Below, piece by piece: positions 28,097 through 60,653 of a stretch of DNA of 64,000 nt. This stretch comes from a virus. The position numbers and the translations under genes are program-made. Position 1 is the stretch's first letter; the number at the start of each line of letters is the position of its first letter. The notes beneath the pieces were generated by a model. It ran no database searches. It was not told where the DNA came from and saw only the letters and a list, made by a program, of their open reading frames with translations. The stretch covers positions 1-64,000 of the IMG/VR virus record IMGVR_UViG_3300040801_002923. One strand, 5' to 3'.

Positions 28097-30910
28097 ATGA
28101 TTCGATTTACATCGCTCACAGTCAGAAACTTCCTCTCGTATGGGGCGGAGCCTACGGTTATTCCGCTCGAGCGCGTCGGAACGACTCTGATCCTTGGTGA
28201 GGACCTCGATAACACATCAGGAGGCACAGGAGCGAATGGCGTAGGGAAAGCACAACCTCTATACTCAAGAATCAAAACCCCTCGCGGCTGGACCACAATG
28301 GGTGAGATTGCTGTTGGTGATCTAATTACAACCCCCAGCGGCGACGTAGCGGCTGTATCTGGTATCTTTCCTCAAGGAAAGCGACCTGTATATCGGTTAA
28401 CGTTTGCAGATGGGAGAACCGTGGACGCCGATGAAAACCACATTTGGAAAGTCCAATCGCACCGGTGGGGCGGACAAGACACCCGCGGCGAGAAGTTTCT
28501 TACTACAAAACAGCTGATTCGTTTTGTTGAAGAGGCTAAAGAAAAGAAAAAGGCTTGGTACAACATCTCTGTACCGCGGATCAAGCATTGTGATGTACTT
28601 GGAGATGCCGAGCTACCACTCGATCCTTACGTCCTCGGAGCATTACTGGGCGACGGCTGCCTCAGCACACAACAACCCAGATTTTCTACCATGGACCCTA
28701 GCATAGTACAGCTCATGAAGGAGGGGTTAGCTGATACCGATGCGAGTTTCTACAAAGAACAGGCTCAAGCTGATTACAGAATCAACGGCATCGATCTGAT
28801 CGAGATATTGGAAGACCTGTCTCTTCGAGGGACCAAAAGCAACACGAAGTTCATTCCCAGCACATACCTTGAAGGTCCTTCGCTCCAGCAGAAACTTCGC
28901 TTACTTCAAGGATTGTTAGATACCGATGGTACTGTCGGTAAAACCAAAAACATTAGCTTCTCGACGGTCAGTAAACAGCTTGCCGAAGATGTTCAGTACT
29001 TAGTTCGAAGCATTGGTGGGGCAGCGAAGATTACAACACGAGCGCCTCGCTACACGTATAAAGGAGAAGTCAAGCAGGGACAGCTCGCGTATAACGTATC
29101 GATCGACTACCGGTCACCACGGGATCTGTTTACCTTAGATCGCAAGCTTGAGCGGCTAAGTGAAGTCAGTCAGTATGCTGATGCGGGTTTGCGCATCACC
29201 GACATTCAACGCGTCGATGATGTGGAGTGCCAGTGTATTATGATCAATCACCCTGATCATCTATACATCACCGATGAGTTTGTTACGACACACAACACCG
29301 TAATTATCAATGCTCTCACTTATGGTGTATACGATCGACCCGTTTCCAACATCTCCAAAGACAACCTCGTCAATAACGTTAACAAAAAGCACATGGAGGT
29401 GGTTGTTGAGTTCTACAAAGGCGATACCCACTACCTGATCCGTCGCGTCCGTAAAGCTAAGAGCTACGCCGCTGGTAACTATGTAGAACTGTTCGAAAAC
29501 GGCGAGGATATCACTCCCGACAGCGTTGCAAACACAAACAAGCACATTGAGTCGATCATCGGTCTCCCCTATGAACTGTTTGTGCGGATCGTTGTGTTTT
29601 CTGCAACGAATGTTCCTTTTCTCGATCTGCCGGTTCGCAGCCAGACCGGTCCGAACCAGATGGATATCATCGAAGAGCTATTCGACCTGAAGCAACTTGC
29701 TGCACAAGCGAAGGTGCTTAAGGATCAGATCAAAGCCGTCGAGACAACCATCACAACTAAGCAGGAACGTAACGATCTGCTTGAGGCGGAAAAGGCCCGC
29801 CACGATAAACAGCTGCAGTCAGCTAAGACACGCGTCGAGAATTGGGAGAAGGGGCGAACCGCTGATATCGCCGAGCTGCAGCGAAAGCTAGCACGGGTCT
29901 CCCAGGTAGATGTGGACGAGCAGCGACAGCTCCACGAACAACTAATCGAAATTGACGATGAGCTTGAACAAGCCCTGAAGCGTCAACGGGAGCTCGAACG
30001 TGAATTCAAAAAGGTTAGAAAGACCAAATCAACCGCCGAGCATGAGCTTGATCACTATCGCGATGATCGCTGCCCAACGTGTTTGCAGCAGTATGACGGT
30101 GCTAAGGAAAAGATCCACGTCTGTGAAGAGCAGTTAACACACGCCAATGCTGATCTAGAAGGTCTCACAGAGCAGATCGCCAACATCGATCAGCTTGTGG
30201 CAGAATGGGAAGCTAAGCGGACAGAAGTCAAGAATCAGATCACCGTAAGTGATCTGCAGGAGCTGATGGAAACTAAGAGCAAGAGCTCTGAATATCTACG
30301 CCGAATCGAAGAACTTCACAGCGCCGGTAATCCATTTGAAGAACCACTACAGGAACTCCAGGAGGTCGAACTACCCCCTGTAGATCACGACGAAGTCGAT
30401 AAACTAATCACCCAGCGTGATCACATGAAGTTCTTGCTCAAACTGCTAACGCGGAATGATAGCTTCGTGCGTAAGGTCCTACTCAACAAGACTCTACCGT
30501 TCCTCAACAAGCGGCTGCAGCACTATCTGACCAGTCTGGGTCTTGCACATCAGGTTGAGTTTACACACGACATGACTGCGAAGATTACGGAGTTCGGTAG
30601 AGAGATGGACTTCGGTAACCTCTCGAATGGACAACGAGCACGGGTTAATATTGCGTTGTCGTTTGCTTTCAGAGACGTAGTGCAGAGTATGCATACCCGA
30701 ATTAATATCTGTATGCTAGACGAAGTACTAGATGTAGGTTTGGATTCTGTTGGGGTTACAGCTGCAGCTAGGATGATTAAACGAAAGGCACGCGACGAAC
30801 AAATGAGCCTATATATCATCAGCCATAGAGATGAGATTGATAGTGCGTTCGACAGCGTGATGACTGTACAAAAACGAGACGGATTTAGCAGGATTTTTGA
30901 CAATGAATAA
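28097..30910 (+). CDS. 46: Recombination endonuclease subunit gp46 (Rad50/SbcC-like) interrupted by an intein
   Basis: 937 residues in one frame; removal of the 349-residue intein (residues 52-400) leaves 588, close to T4 gp46 (560). Extein motifs: N-terminal Walker A GANGVGK ending at K51, continuing with T401 after the intein; long coiled coils with the zinc-hook CPTC in DDRCPTC; ABC signature LSNGQRARVN; Walker B INICMLDEVLD; H-loop IISHRDE. gp46 is the ATPase of the gp46/gp47 end-resection complex. Because the intein splits the P-loop, the protein cannot bind ATP until splicing. Confidence 0.95.
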   Translation: MIRFTSLTVRNFLSYGAEPTVIPLERVGTTLILGEDLDNTSGGTGANGVGKAQPLYSRIKTPRGWTTMGEIAVGDLITTPSGDVAAVSGIFPQGKRPVYRLTFADGRTVDADENHIWKVQSHRWGGQDTRGEKFLTTKQLIRFVEEAKEKKKAWYNISVPRIKHCDVLGDAELPLDPYVLGALLGDGCLSTQQPRFSTMDPSIVQLMKEGLADTDASFYKEQAQADYRINGIDLIEILEDLSLRGTKSNTKFIPSTYLEGPSLQQKLRLLQGLLDTDGTVGKTKNISFSTVSKQLAEDVQYLVRSIGGAAKITTRAPRYTYKGEVKQGQLAYNVSIDYRSPRDLFTLDRKLERLSEVSQYADAGLRITDIQRVDDVECQCIMINHPDHLYITDEFVTTHNTVIINALTYGVYDRPVSNISKDNLVNNVNKKHMEVVVEFYKGDTHYLIRRVRKAKSYAAGNYVELFENGEDITPDSVANTNKHIESIIGLPYELFVRIVVFSATNVPFLDLPVRSQTGPNQMDIIEELFDLKQLAAQAKVLKDQIKAVETTITTKQERNDLLEAEKARHDKQLQSAKTRVENWEKGRTADIAELQRKLARVSQVDVDEQRQLHEQLIEIDDELEQALKRQRELEREFKKVRKTKSTAEHELDHYRDDRCPTCLQQYDGAKEKIHVCEEQLTHANADLEGLTEQIANIDQLVAEWEAKRTEVKNQITVSDLQELMETKSKSSEYLRRIEELHSAGNPFEEPLQELQEVELPPVDHDEVDKLITQRDHMKFLLKLLTRNDSFVRKVLLNKTLPFLNKRLQHYLTSLGLAHQVEFTHDMTAKITEFGREMDFGNLSNGQRARVNIALSFAFRDVVQSMHTRINICMLDEVLDVGLDSVGVTAAARMIKRKARDEQMSLYIISHRDEIDSAFDSVMTVQKRDGFSRIFDNE
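28250..29296 (+). mobile_element. Class 3-type intein with LAGLIDADG homing endonuclease in gp46
   Basis: 349 residues between K51 and T401 of the precursor. Its first residue is Ala rather than Cys or Ser, so the usual N-S/N-O acyl shift is impossible. The class 3 WCT set is visible: W117 in block B (ENHIWKV, with H115), C380 in block F (CQCIMINHPDHLY) and T398 just before the terminal His399-Asn400. The +1 extein residue is Thr. The splicing-domain start LYSRIKTPRGW, then MGEIAVGD, is typical of inteins. Two LAGLIDADG helices (VLGALLGDGCLS at 179-190; LLQGLLDTDGT at 269-279) mark an intact-looking homing endonuclease. Confidence 0.9.
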
Positions 30911-55784: not shown

Positions 55785-56219
55785 ATGGCGAGATCATATA
55801 AGCAAGGTGTATTCACACCGCGACATCCAGAGAAATATGTAGGCAACGCGAATAATATCGTGTTCCGCAGTTCATGGGAGCTTTCCATGAACCAGTTTCT
55901 AGATAACAACCCCAACATTCTTCGCTGGAGTTCCGAAGAGATCGCCATACCGTACGTTAAACCTACCACCGGACGCGTGCACCGCTACTTCCCTGACTAT
56001 TGGATCGAGTATAAGGACCGTGATGGCAATTTGCTTCAGGAAATACTCGAGGTAAAGCCAAGTACGGAAGTTAACCCTAATCTCAAGAAACGCAAATCCA
56101 ACTACGATAAGCTCACCTATGCAATCAACCTTGCAAAGTGGAAAGCAGCCTCTCAGTTTTGCGAGAAGCGGAACATGAAGTTTAGAATCCTAACCGAAAA
56201 CCAGTTGTTCAGCCGCTAG
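55785..56219 (+). CDS. 4: Head completion protein gp4
   Basis: 144 residues; T4 gp4 is 150. The nuclease-like head completion protein is recognised from KYVGNANNIVFRSSWELSMN, NPNILRWSSEEIAIPYVKP, VHRYFPDYWIEYKDRDG and ILEVKPSTEV (D...ExK, a PD-(D/E)XK-type core). It is needed to finish filled heads before tail joining, probably trimming or protecting the packaged DNA end. It ends with TAG directly followed by TAA. Confidence 0.92.
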   Translation: MARSYKQGVFTPRHPEKYVGNANNIVFRSSWELSMNQFLDNNPNILRWSSEEIAIPYVKPTTGRVHRYFPDYWIEYKDRDGNLLQEILEVKPSTEVNPNLKKRKSNYDKLTYAINLAKWKAASQFCEKRNMKFRILTENQLFSR

Positions 56220-56736: not shown

Positions 56737-58290
56737 ATGTCACGAGCATTCAAAGATCCGCAAATCAAACGCGCCGGAACCGAGACGGAATATACCGTCG
56801 AGCAGATCCGTGAGTTAAAGAAGTGCATGAACGATCCGGTGTACTTTATCCGGACATACTGCCGAATTCAGCACCCCGTCGAAGGCGCTATTCCGTTTGA
56901 GCTCTACGACTATCAAATTGAGATGGTCGAGAACTTCCACAATCACAGAAACAACATCGTTCTTAGTGCACGGCAGACTGGTAAGTCGACTGTCTCTTCG
57001 ATGTACCTGCTGTGGTTTGCTATGTTCAATTTCGACAAGACAATTCTCATTGCGTCGAATAAGAACAAAGGTGCGATGGAAATGATCGCTCGTATTCAGT
57101 ATGCATACAAGAACCTCCCGCACTGGCTAAAGCCGGGAGTAACTGACGATGGTTGGAACAAGCACTCACTAAAGTTTGACAACGACAGTGAAATTCAGTC
57201 TGAAGCGACGTCGGAGAATTCTGGTCGTGGTATGTCTATCTCCCTACTCTACCTCGATGAGTTTGCGTTTGTTCCCCCAGCTGTAGCTCAAGAATTCTGG
57301 ACAGCCATTGCGCCTACGTTGTCTACAGGTGGTGCTTGTATCATTTCTTCTACACCAAACGGCGATCAAAACATCTTCTCTGAGCTGTGGAACGGTGCTG
57401 AAATGGGAGTAAACAACTTCCATCCTTCTCATGTGCGCTGGGATCAACCACCGGGGCGCACTAAAGCGTTCAAGGAAGACATGATTGCGCAGATTGGTGA
57501 AACGGCCTGGCTGCAAGAATACGAGTGTGAGTTCCTATCATCCGATGCGCTGCTGATCGACACACTTGTTCTTCAGAACTTGACGCCTGGCATATCCAAG
57601 ATCAAACCAGACTTCGAGATCAATGATGTTAAGTTCTGGAAAAGACCACAGAGTGGTGTGCAATACCTTGTTGGAGTTGATCCAGCTACTGGTACCGGCG
57701 AAGACTTCACTGTGATTACTGTTTGGGAATTTCCAGCGATGGAACAAGTGGCTATGTATCGTTCGAATACGATGTCGTCGGCCAAAGTGTATCCGATTCT
57801 CAAGAACCTACTGAAGTTCTTGGAGCGCACTGGGTCGCAGGTCTACTTCTCAATCGAAAACAATGGTGTTGGTGAGGGCCTTCTAGCACTGTATGAAGCA
57901 GACGAAAACCCACCTCTGATGTCCGAAATGATTTCTGAAACGGGCAAGAATCGTCAAGGCGTAACTACGACGGGCAAGTCTAAGATGCGTTGCTGTCTCA
58001 ATCTCAAGGAATTGATTGAGAAGCGAACGATGACAATTAAAAGCGAGCTGATGCTCAAAGAGTTGAAGAAATTCGTTCGTCGCGCGGCTGGGTATTCAGC
58101 ACAAAACGGGGCAACCGACGACATCATTTCTTCAACACTAATCGTCCTTCGAATTCTCGAAGAAATCTCCTCGTATGACCAAGCGGCCTTTGATACGCTC
58201 CGTGCAGTTGAGGACAGTCCGTGGTCCGAAGCTGACGTCATTCACTACGACGAAGAAGACCCTGATCACGGACCTATGCCTTTCATCTAG
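56737..58290 (+). CDS. 17: Terminase large subunit gp17
   Basis: 517 residues; T4 gp17 is 610. It is the packaging motor and headful nuclease. Adenine-binding Q region at YDYQIEM; Walker A SARQTGKST (77-85); Walker B LLYLDE (170-175); motif III SSTPNGD. RNase H-like nuclease domain: VGVDPATGTGEDFTVITVW with the first Asp, ENNGVGEG, and GATDDIISS with the last Asp. It ends TAG CGT TGA. Separated from the accessory genes by 56 nt. Confidence 0.97.
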   Translation: MSRAFKDPQIKRAGTETEYTVEQIRELKKCMNDPVYFIRTYCRIQHPVEGAIPFELYDYQIEMVENFHNHRNNIVLSARQTGKSTVSSMYLLWFAMFNFDKTILIASNKNKGAMEMIARIQYAYKNLPHWLKPGVTDDGWNKHSLKFDNDSEIQSEATSENSGRGMSISLLYLDEFAFVPPAVAQEFWTAIAPTLSTGGACIISSTPNGDQNIFSELWNGAEMGVNNFHPSHVRWDQPPGRTKAFKEDMIAQIGETAWLQEYECEFLSSDALLIDTLVLQNLTPGISKIKPDFEINDVKFWKRPQSGVQYLVGVDPATGTGEDFTVITVWEFPAMEQVAMYRSNTMSSAKVYPILKNLLKFLERTGSQVYFSIENNGVGEGLLALYEADENPPLMSEMISETGKNRQGVTTTGKSKMRCCLNLKELIEKRTMTIKSELMLKELKKFVRRAAGYSAQNGATDDIISSTLIVLRILEEISSYDQAAFDTLRAVEDSPWSEADVIHYDEEDPDHGPMPFI

Positions 58291-58346: not shown

Positions 58347-58550
58347 ATGGCTGACCCTAGATATCGATGGCGCGTTGACATCTTCGAATATGAGCGTGGG
58401 TGGGGCAGACGTCACGAAGGCGCGAAGTTTTTCGACGATGAAAACGAAGCGTACCAATTTGTCCGAGACTACAATTCTGAAAACACAGAAACGGTAGTCC
58501 CTGATTGGTATATGGCTGCTTCTGCCCCCCAAAAGGTGCAGGTGGCCTAG
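58347..58550 (+). CDS. Small hypothetical protein
   Basis: 67 residues from ATG 58347, with a perfect AGGAGG 9 nt upstream. Aromatic and charged (DPRYRWRVDIFEYERGWGRR; FFDDENEAYQFVRDYNSEN). No family recognised. Its TAG stop overlaps the GTG start of the transporter, so the two are translationally coupled. Confidence 0.75.
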   Translation: MADPRYRWRVDIFEYERGWGRRHEGAKFFDDENEAYQFVRDYNSENTETVVPDWYMAASAPQKVQVA

Positions 58551-59488
58551 TGGGTATAGATGTTGTAGTTGCGTTCTTCGTATTGGGCGCTGTTTCTGTA
58601 CTCATTCGTTCACCAATCAATTTCCCCGAGGGGCTCTACCAAGGGTTGAGCCTCTTCCTGATGTTGGCTATTGGTCTGAAGGGCGGCGTGGCTTTAGCTG
58701 ACCACTTTACAGCAAATGTCCTGCTCCAATCAGCCGGAGTGCTGACCTTGGGGCTGGTGATACCCATCATAGCCTTTCTGATACTGCGAGGGGTCGGAAA
58801 CTTTGATCGCATAAATGCTGGATCGATAGCGGCACATTATGGCTCTGTTAGTGTCGGAACTTATGCTGTTGCTATGTCTGTGTTGCAGAGTATGAACATC
58901 TCTTACGAAGAGTACTTCCCGATGTTTGTTGTTCTGCTGGAGATGCCGGCAATATTGGTGGGGTTGTGGCTTGCAAACCTGGGTGCTGGTGAGCTCAATA
59001 AGAAAGCGCTCCTACACGAAATGACTTGCAATCAGGGCGTTACGTTGATGCTCGGTGGTCTCATTATTGGTGCAATGGCCGGGCATGAAGGTACGGAATC
59101 AATTATGCCCCTGTTCAAAACCCTATTCAGCGGCGCACTAGCGTTATTCCTCCTCGAAATGGGGATCGTCGCAGCCAAGCGGGCTAGAGACATCGGTAAC
59201 CGTCTGATGTTCTTGTTACCGTTCGGGATGACGATGCCAGTGATAGGCGCCGTGTTGGGGATGTGGATGGGTGATGTGTTGCACTTCTCTCAAGGTGGCG
59301 TGGTTCTACTCACTGTTTTGGCGGCAAGTTGTTCTTACATAGCGGTACCTGCTGTAATGCGCGCTGCTCTGCCTACAGCGGATCATGGGATGGCGATAGC
59401 CACATCGCTTGCAATCACATTCCCATTCAACGTAATTGTTGGAATTCCAATGTACATCTGGTTCATTCAACGCTTGCACTTGGGTTAA
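58550..59488 (+). CDS. SbtA-family sodium-dependent bicarbonate transporter homologue
   Basis: 312 residues from GTG 58550 (AGGTGG upstream, overlapping the previous TAG). Family signatures of Sbt_1: FLMLAIGLKGGVALA, GSIAAHYGSVSVGTYAVAMS, FVVLLEMPAILVGLWLANLG, FKTLFSGALALFLLEMGIVA, AASCSYIAVPAVMRAALPTA and SLAITFPFNVIVGIPMYIWF. About ten hydrophobic segments are visible. Length fits bacterial Sbt_1 members (cyanobacterial SbtA is about 370), and both inverted-repeat halves appear intact. It would import bicarbonate with sodium into the infected cell. No SbtB-type regulator is encoded nearby. Confidence 0.88.
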   Translation: MGIDVVVAFFVLGAVSVLIRSPINFPEGLYQGLSLFLMLAIGLKGGVALADHFTANVLLQSAGVLTLGLVIPIIAFLILRGVGNFDRINAGSIAAHYGSVSVGTYAVAMSVLQSMNISYEEYFPMFVVLLEMPAILVGLWLANLGAGELNKKALLHEMTCNQGVTLMLGGLIIGAMAGHEGTESIMPLFKTLFSGALALFLLEMGIVAAKRARDIGNRLMFLLPFGMTMPVIGAVLGMWMGDVLHFSQGGVVLLTVLAASCSYIAVPAVMRAALPTADHGMAIATSLAITFPFNVIVGIPMYIWFIQRLHLG

Positions 59489-59528: not shown

Positions 59529-60653
59529 ATGTACACAGATCAAGACAAATTCATTCACTGGTACAATGAAGTGTTCCGGTACGATCCACTCTACGCAGCT
59601 ATGTGGGAGACGGTCGAGGGTTCACCGTGGCACCGTGAGGCCAACGTCGGCGTTCACACCGATATGGTAGTCAGTCAATATCTAATGCTGTCCAACAGCG
59701 AAGGGCCGGGCATGCTGGATAGTGAGTGCTTTAACGTCCGCGGCGCTCTCGGATGTGCTTTCCACGACGTTGGTAAGCCGCCCGCTATGCAGATCAAATT
59801 CAAGGAAGATCGTGGGGAGTACAAAGCATTCCATGGTCATGAATTGATTTCAGCCCGCATGTGGGAAAATTGGGCTGTTGGTAACTGGAGCTTTTTGCAA
59901 CGTGAGTTCGGCTTCGAACCCATCGACATCTACACTGTGGGTTGGATGATCGAACATCATGTACCCTGGGCAACCAAGAAGGATGAAAAGCTCGACGCAT
60001 TTGCTGCAACAGCTTACACGACGCTGGGGCATTCATGTGCATGGACCGATATGTTAATGGCTGATCAGCGTGGACGAATCTCTGATTCGAGCCACCAGCG
60101 GTTTGAAGAGGCGCAGATCTGGATTTACGATCATGAAGAGCGTCGTGCTAAGGCTGAGTGGGGGTTCGAGCTGGTCACCGACAAGACGGTGTACATGCTT
60201 ATCGGCGCCCCAGGAGCTGGCAAATCGACGTACCGCCAGAAGCTGCTAGCGGAAAATCCCGGTGCAGCGGTTCTAAGCATGGACGATCTTCGGATCGAGT
60301 TCTATGGTGAGCCGTATGAGAATGCGTTTGCCAAAGCCTCGAAGGACAGCTCTTTCAACGCCAAAGTGGATGCACGGTACATCGACACACTTCGCCAGAA
60401 TGAAGTTGTGATTCTCGACAATACCAATACGGCGGCACGCGCACGTAAGCGCTGGCTCGCTCCGGCACGGGCTCGTGACTTTCGAATTGTTGCGGTGTTG
60501 TTCCCTGTGCAATTGCAGACGGTGCTTGACCGACAGCGGTCGCGAACCGACAAGACAATCCCGGATCAGGTTGTATCCGATATGTACAACCGTATGTCGT
60601 TGCCTATGATCGGCGATTTCGATGAGATTATCGTTCACGACGGCAACCTCTGA
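59529..60653 (+). CDS. HD-Pnk: HD phosphohydrolase fused to polynucleotide-kinase-like P-loop domain
   Basis: 374 residues from ATG 59529 (GAGGATAG upstream). The N-terminal HD domain has HREANVGVH, CAFHDVGKPP (HD 79-80), FHGHE (His 102, 104) and IEHH. The C-terminal kinase has P-loop GAPGAGKS (226-233), MDDLR (251-255) and a lid-like DRQRSRTDKT. The order matches bacterial HD-Pnk end-healing enzymes, which phosphorylate 5'-OH ends and remove 2',3'-cyclic or 3' phosphates. T4 does this with Pnk, built the other way round (kinase plus DxD phosphatase). Likely role: repair of tRNA or DNA cut by host defence nucleases. No ligase gene is in this window. Confidence 0.85.
   Translation: MYTDQDKFIHWYNEVFRYDPLYAAMWETVEGSPWHREANVGVHTDMVVSQYLMLSNSEGPGMLDSECFNVRGALGCAFHDVGKPPAMQIKFKEDRGEYKAFHGHELISARMWENWAVGNWSFLQREFGFEPIDIYTVGWMIEHHVPWATKKDEKLDAFAATAYTTLGHSCAWTDMLMADQRGRISDSSHQRFEEAQIWIYDHEERRAKAEWGFELVTDKTVYMLIGAPGAGKSTYRQKLLAENPGAAVLSMDDLRIEFYGEPYENAFAKASKDSSFNAKVDARYIDTLRQNEVVILDNTNTAARARKRWLAPARARDFRIVAVLFPVQLQTVLDRQRSRTDKTIPDQVVSDMYNRMSLPMIGDFDEIIVHDGNL

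What the first reader, a model, noticed from the sequence alone, without database searches (positions are those of the whole stretch)
58550..59488. A phage-encoded SbtA-family bicarbonate transporter
The 312-residue membrane protein carries the conserved blocks of the Sbt_1 sodium/bicarbonate symporter family and appears full length. It is flanked directly by the terminase gene and an RNA/DNA-repair gene, so it is part of the phage genome, not a host fragment at an edge. I know of no well-characterised phage SbtA. Inference: it raises inorganic carbon (or a related anion) supply for nucleotide synthesis or carboxylation during infection.
Basis: partly seen in the sequence, partly recalled or inferred. 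Interest (0 to 1): 0.8.

Follow-up and report, generated by a model that had tools for sequence, protein, structure and literature searches.

The report
Phage-borne bicarbonate transporter beside terminase
A large T4-like virus of bacteria carries an intact copy of a bacterial sodium-driven bicarbonate transporter, taken from marine gammaproteobacteria in which the same gene often sits next to bicarbonate-using purine-synthesis genes, so the virus probably uses it to feed DNA-building-block synthesis during infection; no such virus gene was found in the literature or annotated phage genomes I could search.

Summary
Window 58550-59488 (+) encodes a full-length 312-aa Sbt_1 (PF05982) protein: 351 bits, E 6e-105, model positions 2-308 of 308. 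It keeps all 45 near-invariant family positions and folds like SbtA (pLDDT 95, TM-score 0.91 to PDB 8zor). It is a real phage gene: it overlaps by one base the stop of a phage-family ORF, lies between terminase and a phage HD/kinase gene, and has the phage's GC and codon usage. A related viral contig (L100) has the same locus without it. None of 50,697 annotated phages encodes a recognisable relative, and only seven IMG/VR contigs were found, on a different branch. The tree places the protein among marine gammaproteobacterial transporters. In 8 of 14 of those relatives sbt is followed directly by purE-purK; PurK consumes bicarbonate. Most of these genomes hold a second purE elsewhere. Two reservations remain. 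This clade lacks two of the four modelled SbtA bicarbonate ligands (Y140 to V, S327 to A), and its only studied member, Shewanella SO_3758, was linked to formate tolerance with bicarbonate transport unproven. Substrate and direction need an assay.

The parts
58550..59488 (+). Sbt_1 (PF05982) sodium/bicarbonate-transporter family gene, 312 aa, GTG start
58540..58545 (+). AGGTGG, Shine-Dalgarno-like, 4 nt before the GTG start
   Evidence: read directly
58347..58550 (+). 67-aa phage ORF whose TAG stop overlaps the sbt GTG start by one base
   Evidence: Caulobacter phage Cr30, Synechococcus phage BUCT-ZZ01; phrog_14410
56737..58290 (+). terminase large subunit, T4-like
   Evidence: best Xanthomonas phage XacN1, 50.5% identity
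56230..56706 (+). terminase small subunit
   Evidence: phrog_445
55785..56219 (+). head closure protein, TnsA-like fold
   Evidence: phrog_218
59529..60653 (+). HD-domain/P-loop kinase-like fusion (AAA_33, phrog_6931), the downstream phage neighbour
   Evidence: homologue directly follows TerL in L100

Best explanation
A large T4-like phage, probably of a marine gammaproteobacterium, acquired a host sbt gene as an auxiliary metabolic gene. During infection the protein would sit in the host inner membrane as an elevator-type, Na+-coupled transporter that brings bicarbonate into the cell. It would thereby relieve bicarbonate limitation of host PurK (purine synthesis), and perhaps of carbamoyl-phosphate synthase and acetyl-CoA carboxylase, while the phage makes large amounts of DNA. 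Shown here: family membership, intactness, predicted fold, phage location, origin from a marine gammaproteobacterial clade, and the sbt-purE-purK linkage in that clade. Inferred: substrate, direction, Na+ coupling, expression during infection and benefit to the phage.
For: Family and fold: 351-bit full-length Sbt_1 match; model pLDDT 95.2, TM-score 0.91 to SbtA 8zor and 0.84 to HCO3-bound 7egl. Function kept: 0 deviations at 45 near-invariant columns despite a branch of about 1 substitution per site. Phage gene: one-base overlap with a phage-family ORF, phage-like GC and codon usage, sbt-free version of the locus in L100. Origin: 100/99 clade with 14 marine gammaproteobacterial sbt genes. Context: purE and purK start about 20-550 bp downstream of sbt in L020-L024, L026, L029, L030, verified as AIRC and TIGR01161 purK in L021. 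Other arrangements of sbt with purE/K occur elsewhere: sbt-sbtB-purE-purK in L032, L042, L076; purE/K upstream in L087, L089, L099. Seven of eight linked genomes have another purE elsewhere, as expected for a dedicated cassette. In a drawn gammaproteobacterial sample, 2 of 26 Sbt_1 genomes other than the reference have purE adjacent, where roughly 0.02 would be expected by position alone (my estimate). SbtB-like gene next to sbt in 50 of 80 cellular loci; CbbR-like LysR divergent to sbt in the phage's clade. PurK uses HCO3- and purK mutants need high CO2 (PMC10880623); nucleotide synthesis is among the HCO3- demands of heterotrophs (PMC9894237).
Against: Of the four HCO3- ligands modelled and mutated in SbtA (PMC8352866), S114 and S324 are kept (S101, S262) but Y140 and S327 are V127 and A265, here and in practically the whole non-cyanobacterial clade. 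The studied clade relative SO_3758 was linked to formate tolerance, and its authors leaned to efflux (PMC12093963). The phage record encodes no PurE/PurK (ATP-grasp absent) and no SbtB next to sbt; the record may be a fragment. Only one phage of this lineage is known to carry it.
Confidence: 0.6

Rival explanations
1. It moves a different small anion, formate being the prime candidate, possibly outward, and protects or re-tunes the host's one-carbon metabolism during infection.
For: The only experimentally touched member of this clade, Shewanella SO_3758, changes formate tolerance through A269T, and its wild type improves formate tolerance of Zymomonas (PMC12093963). Two of four modelled SbtA HCO3- ligands are missing in the clade. 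Formate also feeds purine synthesis through PurT, which would fit the purine linkage (general knowledge).
Against: The specific neighbours are PurE/PurK, the HCO3- step, not PurT. SbtB and CbbR-like neighbours in the wider family point to inorganic carbon. SO_3758 docking scores favoured bicarbonate over formate for the wild type (PMC12093963).
Confidence: 0.15
2. It imports bicarbonate, but the benefit to the phage is not nucleotides: support of acetyl-CoA carboxylase or anaplerosis, or cytoplasmic pH buffering.
For: Bicarbonate has several obligate uses in heterotrophs (PMC9894237). Nothing in the phage record itself points to purines alone.
Against: The neighbour signal in the clade of origin is purE-purK. 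A distant viral Sbt_1 (L113) sits directly after an IMPDH/GMP-reductase gene, again purine.
Confidence: 0.2
3. It is a passenger: a recently captured host gene without a role in infection, or an assembly join of phage and host DNA.
For: Only one phage of this lineage is known to carry it; no transcription data; a single virus record.
Against: All 45 near-invariant residues kept on a long branch; one-base overlap with a phage ORF; GC and codon usage of the phage; phage genes on both sides in the order seen in L100.
Confidence: 0.05

Closest known systems
SbtA, Na+/HCO3- symporter of Synechocystis (Slr1512; PDB 7cye, 7egl, 8zor; TC 2.A.83)
   Same: Same Pfam family and same predicted 10-helix fold with two broken crossover helices (TM-score up to 0.91, 27-28% identity); S114 and S324 equivalents kept
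   Different: 312 instead of 374 aa; lacks the about 45-residue cytoplasmic loop (166-212); YGSVSV and SYIAVP in place of FGAVSG and SDISGP; Y140 and S327 replaced; no sbtB next to it
Marine gammaproteobacterial sbt of the LysR-small ORF-sbt-purE-purK cassette (Halioglobus, Pleionea, Kangiella, Marinobacter and others)
   Same: 49-56% identity; one clade at 100/99 support; same length, no SbtB
   Different: Chromosomal, with purE-purK and a divergent LysR; the phage carries only the transporter
SO_3758 of Shewanella oneidensis (putative Sbt-like transporter, PMC12093963)
   Same: Presumed same clade through Shewanella L025 (SO_3758 itself was not in my tree); same Ser-x-Ser-Tyr-Ile-Ala site residues
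   Different: Cys261 in the phage where SO_3758 has Ala269 (the residue whose change to Thr gives formate tolerance); host gene, function unproven
Sbt_1 genes of other viral contigs (L014-L018, L019, L113 in IMG/VR)
   Same: Sbt_1 family; two are in large contigs with a phage terminase (G001 518 kb, G002 121 kb)
   Different: 36-38% identity for those compared and a separate branch of the tree, so a separate acquisition; different neighbours (TerC, peroxiredoxin, QueD, IMPDH-like)

Membership tests
Sbt_1 (PF05982) | Full-length match above the curated cut-off (27 bits) | tested here: met
   351.3 bits, model 2-308/308
Sbt_1 (PF05982) | Ten-helix inverted-repeat fold with broken TM4 and TM9 | tested here: met
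   AlphaFold model pLDDT 95.2; breaks at 97-101 and 260-264; SbtA entries are the top five PDB hits
SbtA-type bicarbonate symporter | Four HCO3- ligands S114, Y140, S324, S327 (docking plus mutants, PMC8352866) | tested here: not met
   S114 and S324 kept, Y140 to V127 and S327 to A265, as in nearly the whole non-cyanobacterial clade. So it is filed as Sbt_1, not as SbtA proper
SbtA-type bicarbonate symporter | Regulation by the PII-like protein SbtB encoded next to it | tested here: not met
   No SbtB in the adjoining phage genes, nor next to sbt in the 14 cellular relatives of its clade
SbtA-type bicarbonate symporter | Na+-dependent HCO3- uptake | not testable with these tools
   needs an uptake or complementation assay
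Phage auxiliary metabolic gene | Intact host-derived metabolic gene inside a phage genome with phage genes on both sides | tested here: met
Phage auxiliary metabolic gene | Expression and benefit during infection | not testable with these tools
   no transcriptome or host at hand; no TATAAATA late-promoter motif within 58.2-58.6 kb

The most novel reading that the evidence does not exclude
Large T4-like phages have at least twice independently recruited Sbt_1 transporters to raise intracellular bicarbonate for purine nucleotide synthesis. That would be an inorganic-carbon-acquisition class of auxiliary metabolic gene serving infected heterotrophs rather than photosynthesis, drawn from an unrecognised bacterial low-CO2 cassette (LysR-sbt-purE-purK).
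Probability: 0.45. Interest if true: 0.8.

Novelty: new variant of a known kind. Interest (0 to 1): 0.62.

Why it matters
Phage transporters known from earlier work, as I recall it, bring in phosphate, ammonium or similar nutrients; inorganic carbon would be a new resource on that list, and in a non-photosynthetic setting. If right, bicarbonate supply is a bottleneck for DNA synthesis in infected heterotrophs. That is directly testable in carbonic-anhydrase-deficient E. coli. The sbt-purE-purK cassette, with a second purE copy elsewhere in most carriers, also gives a concrete lead on what the poorly understood Sbt_1 proteins of heterotrophic bacteria do.

Tried and rejected
Assembly chimera or host fragment: rejected on the overlap with a phage ORF, phage-like codon usage and the sbt-free homologous locus. 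Host two-gene capture: the phage small ORF upstream of sbt resembles in position the 66-75 aa ORF upstream of cellular sbt, but it is a soluble phage-family protein, not the two-helix cellular one. OxyR/TerC/peroxiredoxin link seen near some Sbt_1 genes (plasmids L010, L011; phages L015, L016): real, but outside the phage's clade. Close phage relatives with sbt: none found with P0001 or gamma-clade patterns in IMG/VR, or by tblastn in 50,697 phages. Viral structure library: no relative at E below 0.001. NCBIfam and PHROGs: no model. PurK in phage records with sbt: none. Promoters around sbt: no more than shuffles give. Papers: no report of a viral bicarbonate transporter in the held library; three searches gave no paper and one gave two unrelated ones.

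Full report
Observation. The ORF at 58550-59488 (+) is real: GTG start, 312 aa, TAA stop. It is an unambiguous Sbt_1 protein (PF05982, E 6.1e-105, 351 bits, model positions 2-308 of 308), and no other Pfam family matches. By sequence its only solved relative is cyanobacterial SbtA (with a profile, E 2e-92). An AlphaFold model built from 69 homologues has mean pLDDT 95.2 and ten-helix architecture with the two broken crossover helices. The five best PDB matches are all SbtA (TM-score 0.82-0.91 on the query), then bile-acid symporters of the same superfamily fold. No protein in the viral structure library resembles it at E below 0.001.

It is a phage gene. The window is part of a 118,481-bp virus record with T4-type portal, terminase, tail-tube and head-closure genes and an excess of the T4 late-promoter motif TATAAATA (6 against 0.7 expected). 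The closest cultured terminases are those of Xanthomonas phage XacN1 and Stenotrophomonas phages CM1/RAS14 at 47-51%; all are large phages of Gammaproteobacteria. The sbt start codon overlaps by one base the stop of a 67-aa ORF that belongs to a phage family. GC, GC3 and codon usage fall within the range of the neighbouring phage genes. A related IMG/VR contig, L100 (terminase 57% identical), has the same order head closure - small terminase - large terminase - HD/kinase gene, with the last two separated by only 36 bases and neither sbt nor the 67-aa ORF between them. So sbt is a lineage-specific insertion in an otherwise conserved locus.

Where it came from. Of 577 confirmed relatives in 85,000 bacterial and archaeal genomes, the closest are marine Gammaproteobacteria (Halioglobus 56%, Pleionea 55%, Kangiella 54%, Marinobacter 56%). 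A maximum-likelihood tree puts the phage protein in a 100/99-supported clade with 14 of them, on a branch of 0.97 substitutions per site. In spite of that branch it keeps every one of 45 near-invariant positions of the family, which argues that it has been under selection for function. Other viral Sbt_1 proteins are rare: none in 50,697 annotated phages, and seven IMG/VR contigs in three alignment-based scans, two of them large contigs with a phage terminase (518 and 121 kb). They are 36-38% identical where compared and the five in the tree lie on a different branch, so phages have taken up Sbt_1 genes at least twice.

What it probably transports. Neighbours of the cellular genes are informative. 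In 8 of the 14 clade members purE and purK follow sbt directly, and a CbbR-like LysR regulator is divergent to it. The purE and purK calls were checked with Pfam and NCBIfam on L021. Elsewhere in the family sbt is combined with purE/K in other orders (sbt-sbtB-purE-purK in L032, L042, L076; purE/K upstream in L087, L089, L099), and an SbtB-like PII gene is next to sbt in 50 of 80 loci. Seven of the eight directly linked clade genomes have a second purE elsewhere, whereas five unlinked genomes examined in the same clade have one. That is the pattern of a dedicated cassette. In a sample of 143 gammaproteobacterial genomes, 27 have a bona fide Sbt_1; leaving out the reference genome, 2 of 26 have purE immediately beside it, against about 0.02 expected by position (my estimate). 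PurK is a bicarbonate-consuming ATP-grasp enzyme, and cyanobacterial purK mutants need high CO2 (PMC10880623). Heterotrophs have an obligate bicarbonate requirement for nucleotide, lipid and arginine synthesis (PMC9894237). This makes bicarbonate the likeliest substrate and purine synthesis the likeliest sink.

Reservations. SbtA has four modelled HCO3- ligands, each needed for full activity (PMC8352866). The phage and its whole non-cyanobacterial clade keep S114 and S324 (S101, S262) but have V127 (L, V or M in the clade) and A265 for Y140 and S327. Na+ in SbtA is held by main-chain oxygens, so sequence says little about it. The only experimental work found on a close relative is on Shewanella SO_3758, where A269T gives formate tolerance and direction and substrate are unproven (PMC12093963); the phage has Cys261 there. 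Membership in Sbt_1 is therefore secure, membership in SbtA as a proven bicarbonate symporter is not, and working like SbtA is likely. The phage record contains no ATP-grasp PurK, so it would feed host enzymes.

Verdict. It is a new variant of a known kind: a known transporter family in a new role as a phage auxiliary gene. Shown: family, predicted fold, phage location, origin, conservation, purE-purK linkage in the clade of origin. Inferred: substrate, direction, expression and benefit.

Noticed in passing
L004:4774-5370 (G000 106273-106869): The phage record encodes a full-length Fe/Mn superoxide dismutase (Pfam Sod_Fe_N and Sod_Fe_C; closest NCBIfam model Fe-SOD), unusual for a phage and with no PHROG match.
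   Followed up: partly
L020-L024, L026, L029, L030; genomes G151-G157, G007: Marine gammaproteobacterial cassette LysR - small two-helix ORF - sbt - purE - purK; seven of eight carriers have a second purE elsewhere, suggesting a low-CO2 purine cassette.
   Followed up: partly
L113:4474-6575: A distant viral Sbt_1 gene (226 bits, with altered YGSVS and SYIAVP motifs) lies directly after an IMP dehydrogenase/GMP reductase gene.
   Followed up: partly
L016:943-4680 and L015:7255-10930: Viral contigs carry Sbt_1 near TerC, peroxiredoxin and class II aldolase-like genes; TerC and OxyR-like neighbours recur at some plasmid Sbt_1 genes (L010, L011).
   Followed up: no
window 28097-30910 and L003:234-2309: LAGLIDADG inserts (probable inteins) inside an SMC-like recombination nuclease gene and a helicase gene of the phage.
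   Followed up: partly
L004:2588-3679, L004:7467-8030, L004:16100-16582: The phage encodes a GTP cyclohydrolase FolE2-like protein, a dCTP deaminase/dUTPase-like protein and a phosphoribosyltransferase.
   Followed up: partly
L004:15555-16142: A protein with a type IV pilin-like hydrophobic start, after two large proteins that begin with signal-peptide-like stretches; no Pfam match for the pilin-like protein or the first large one.
   Followed up: no
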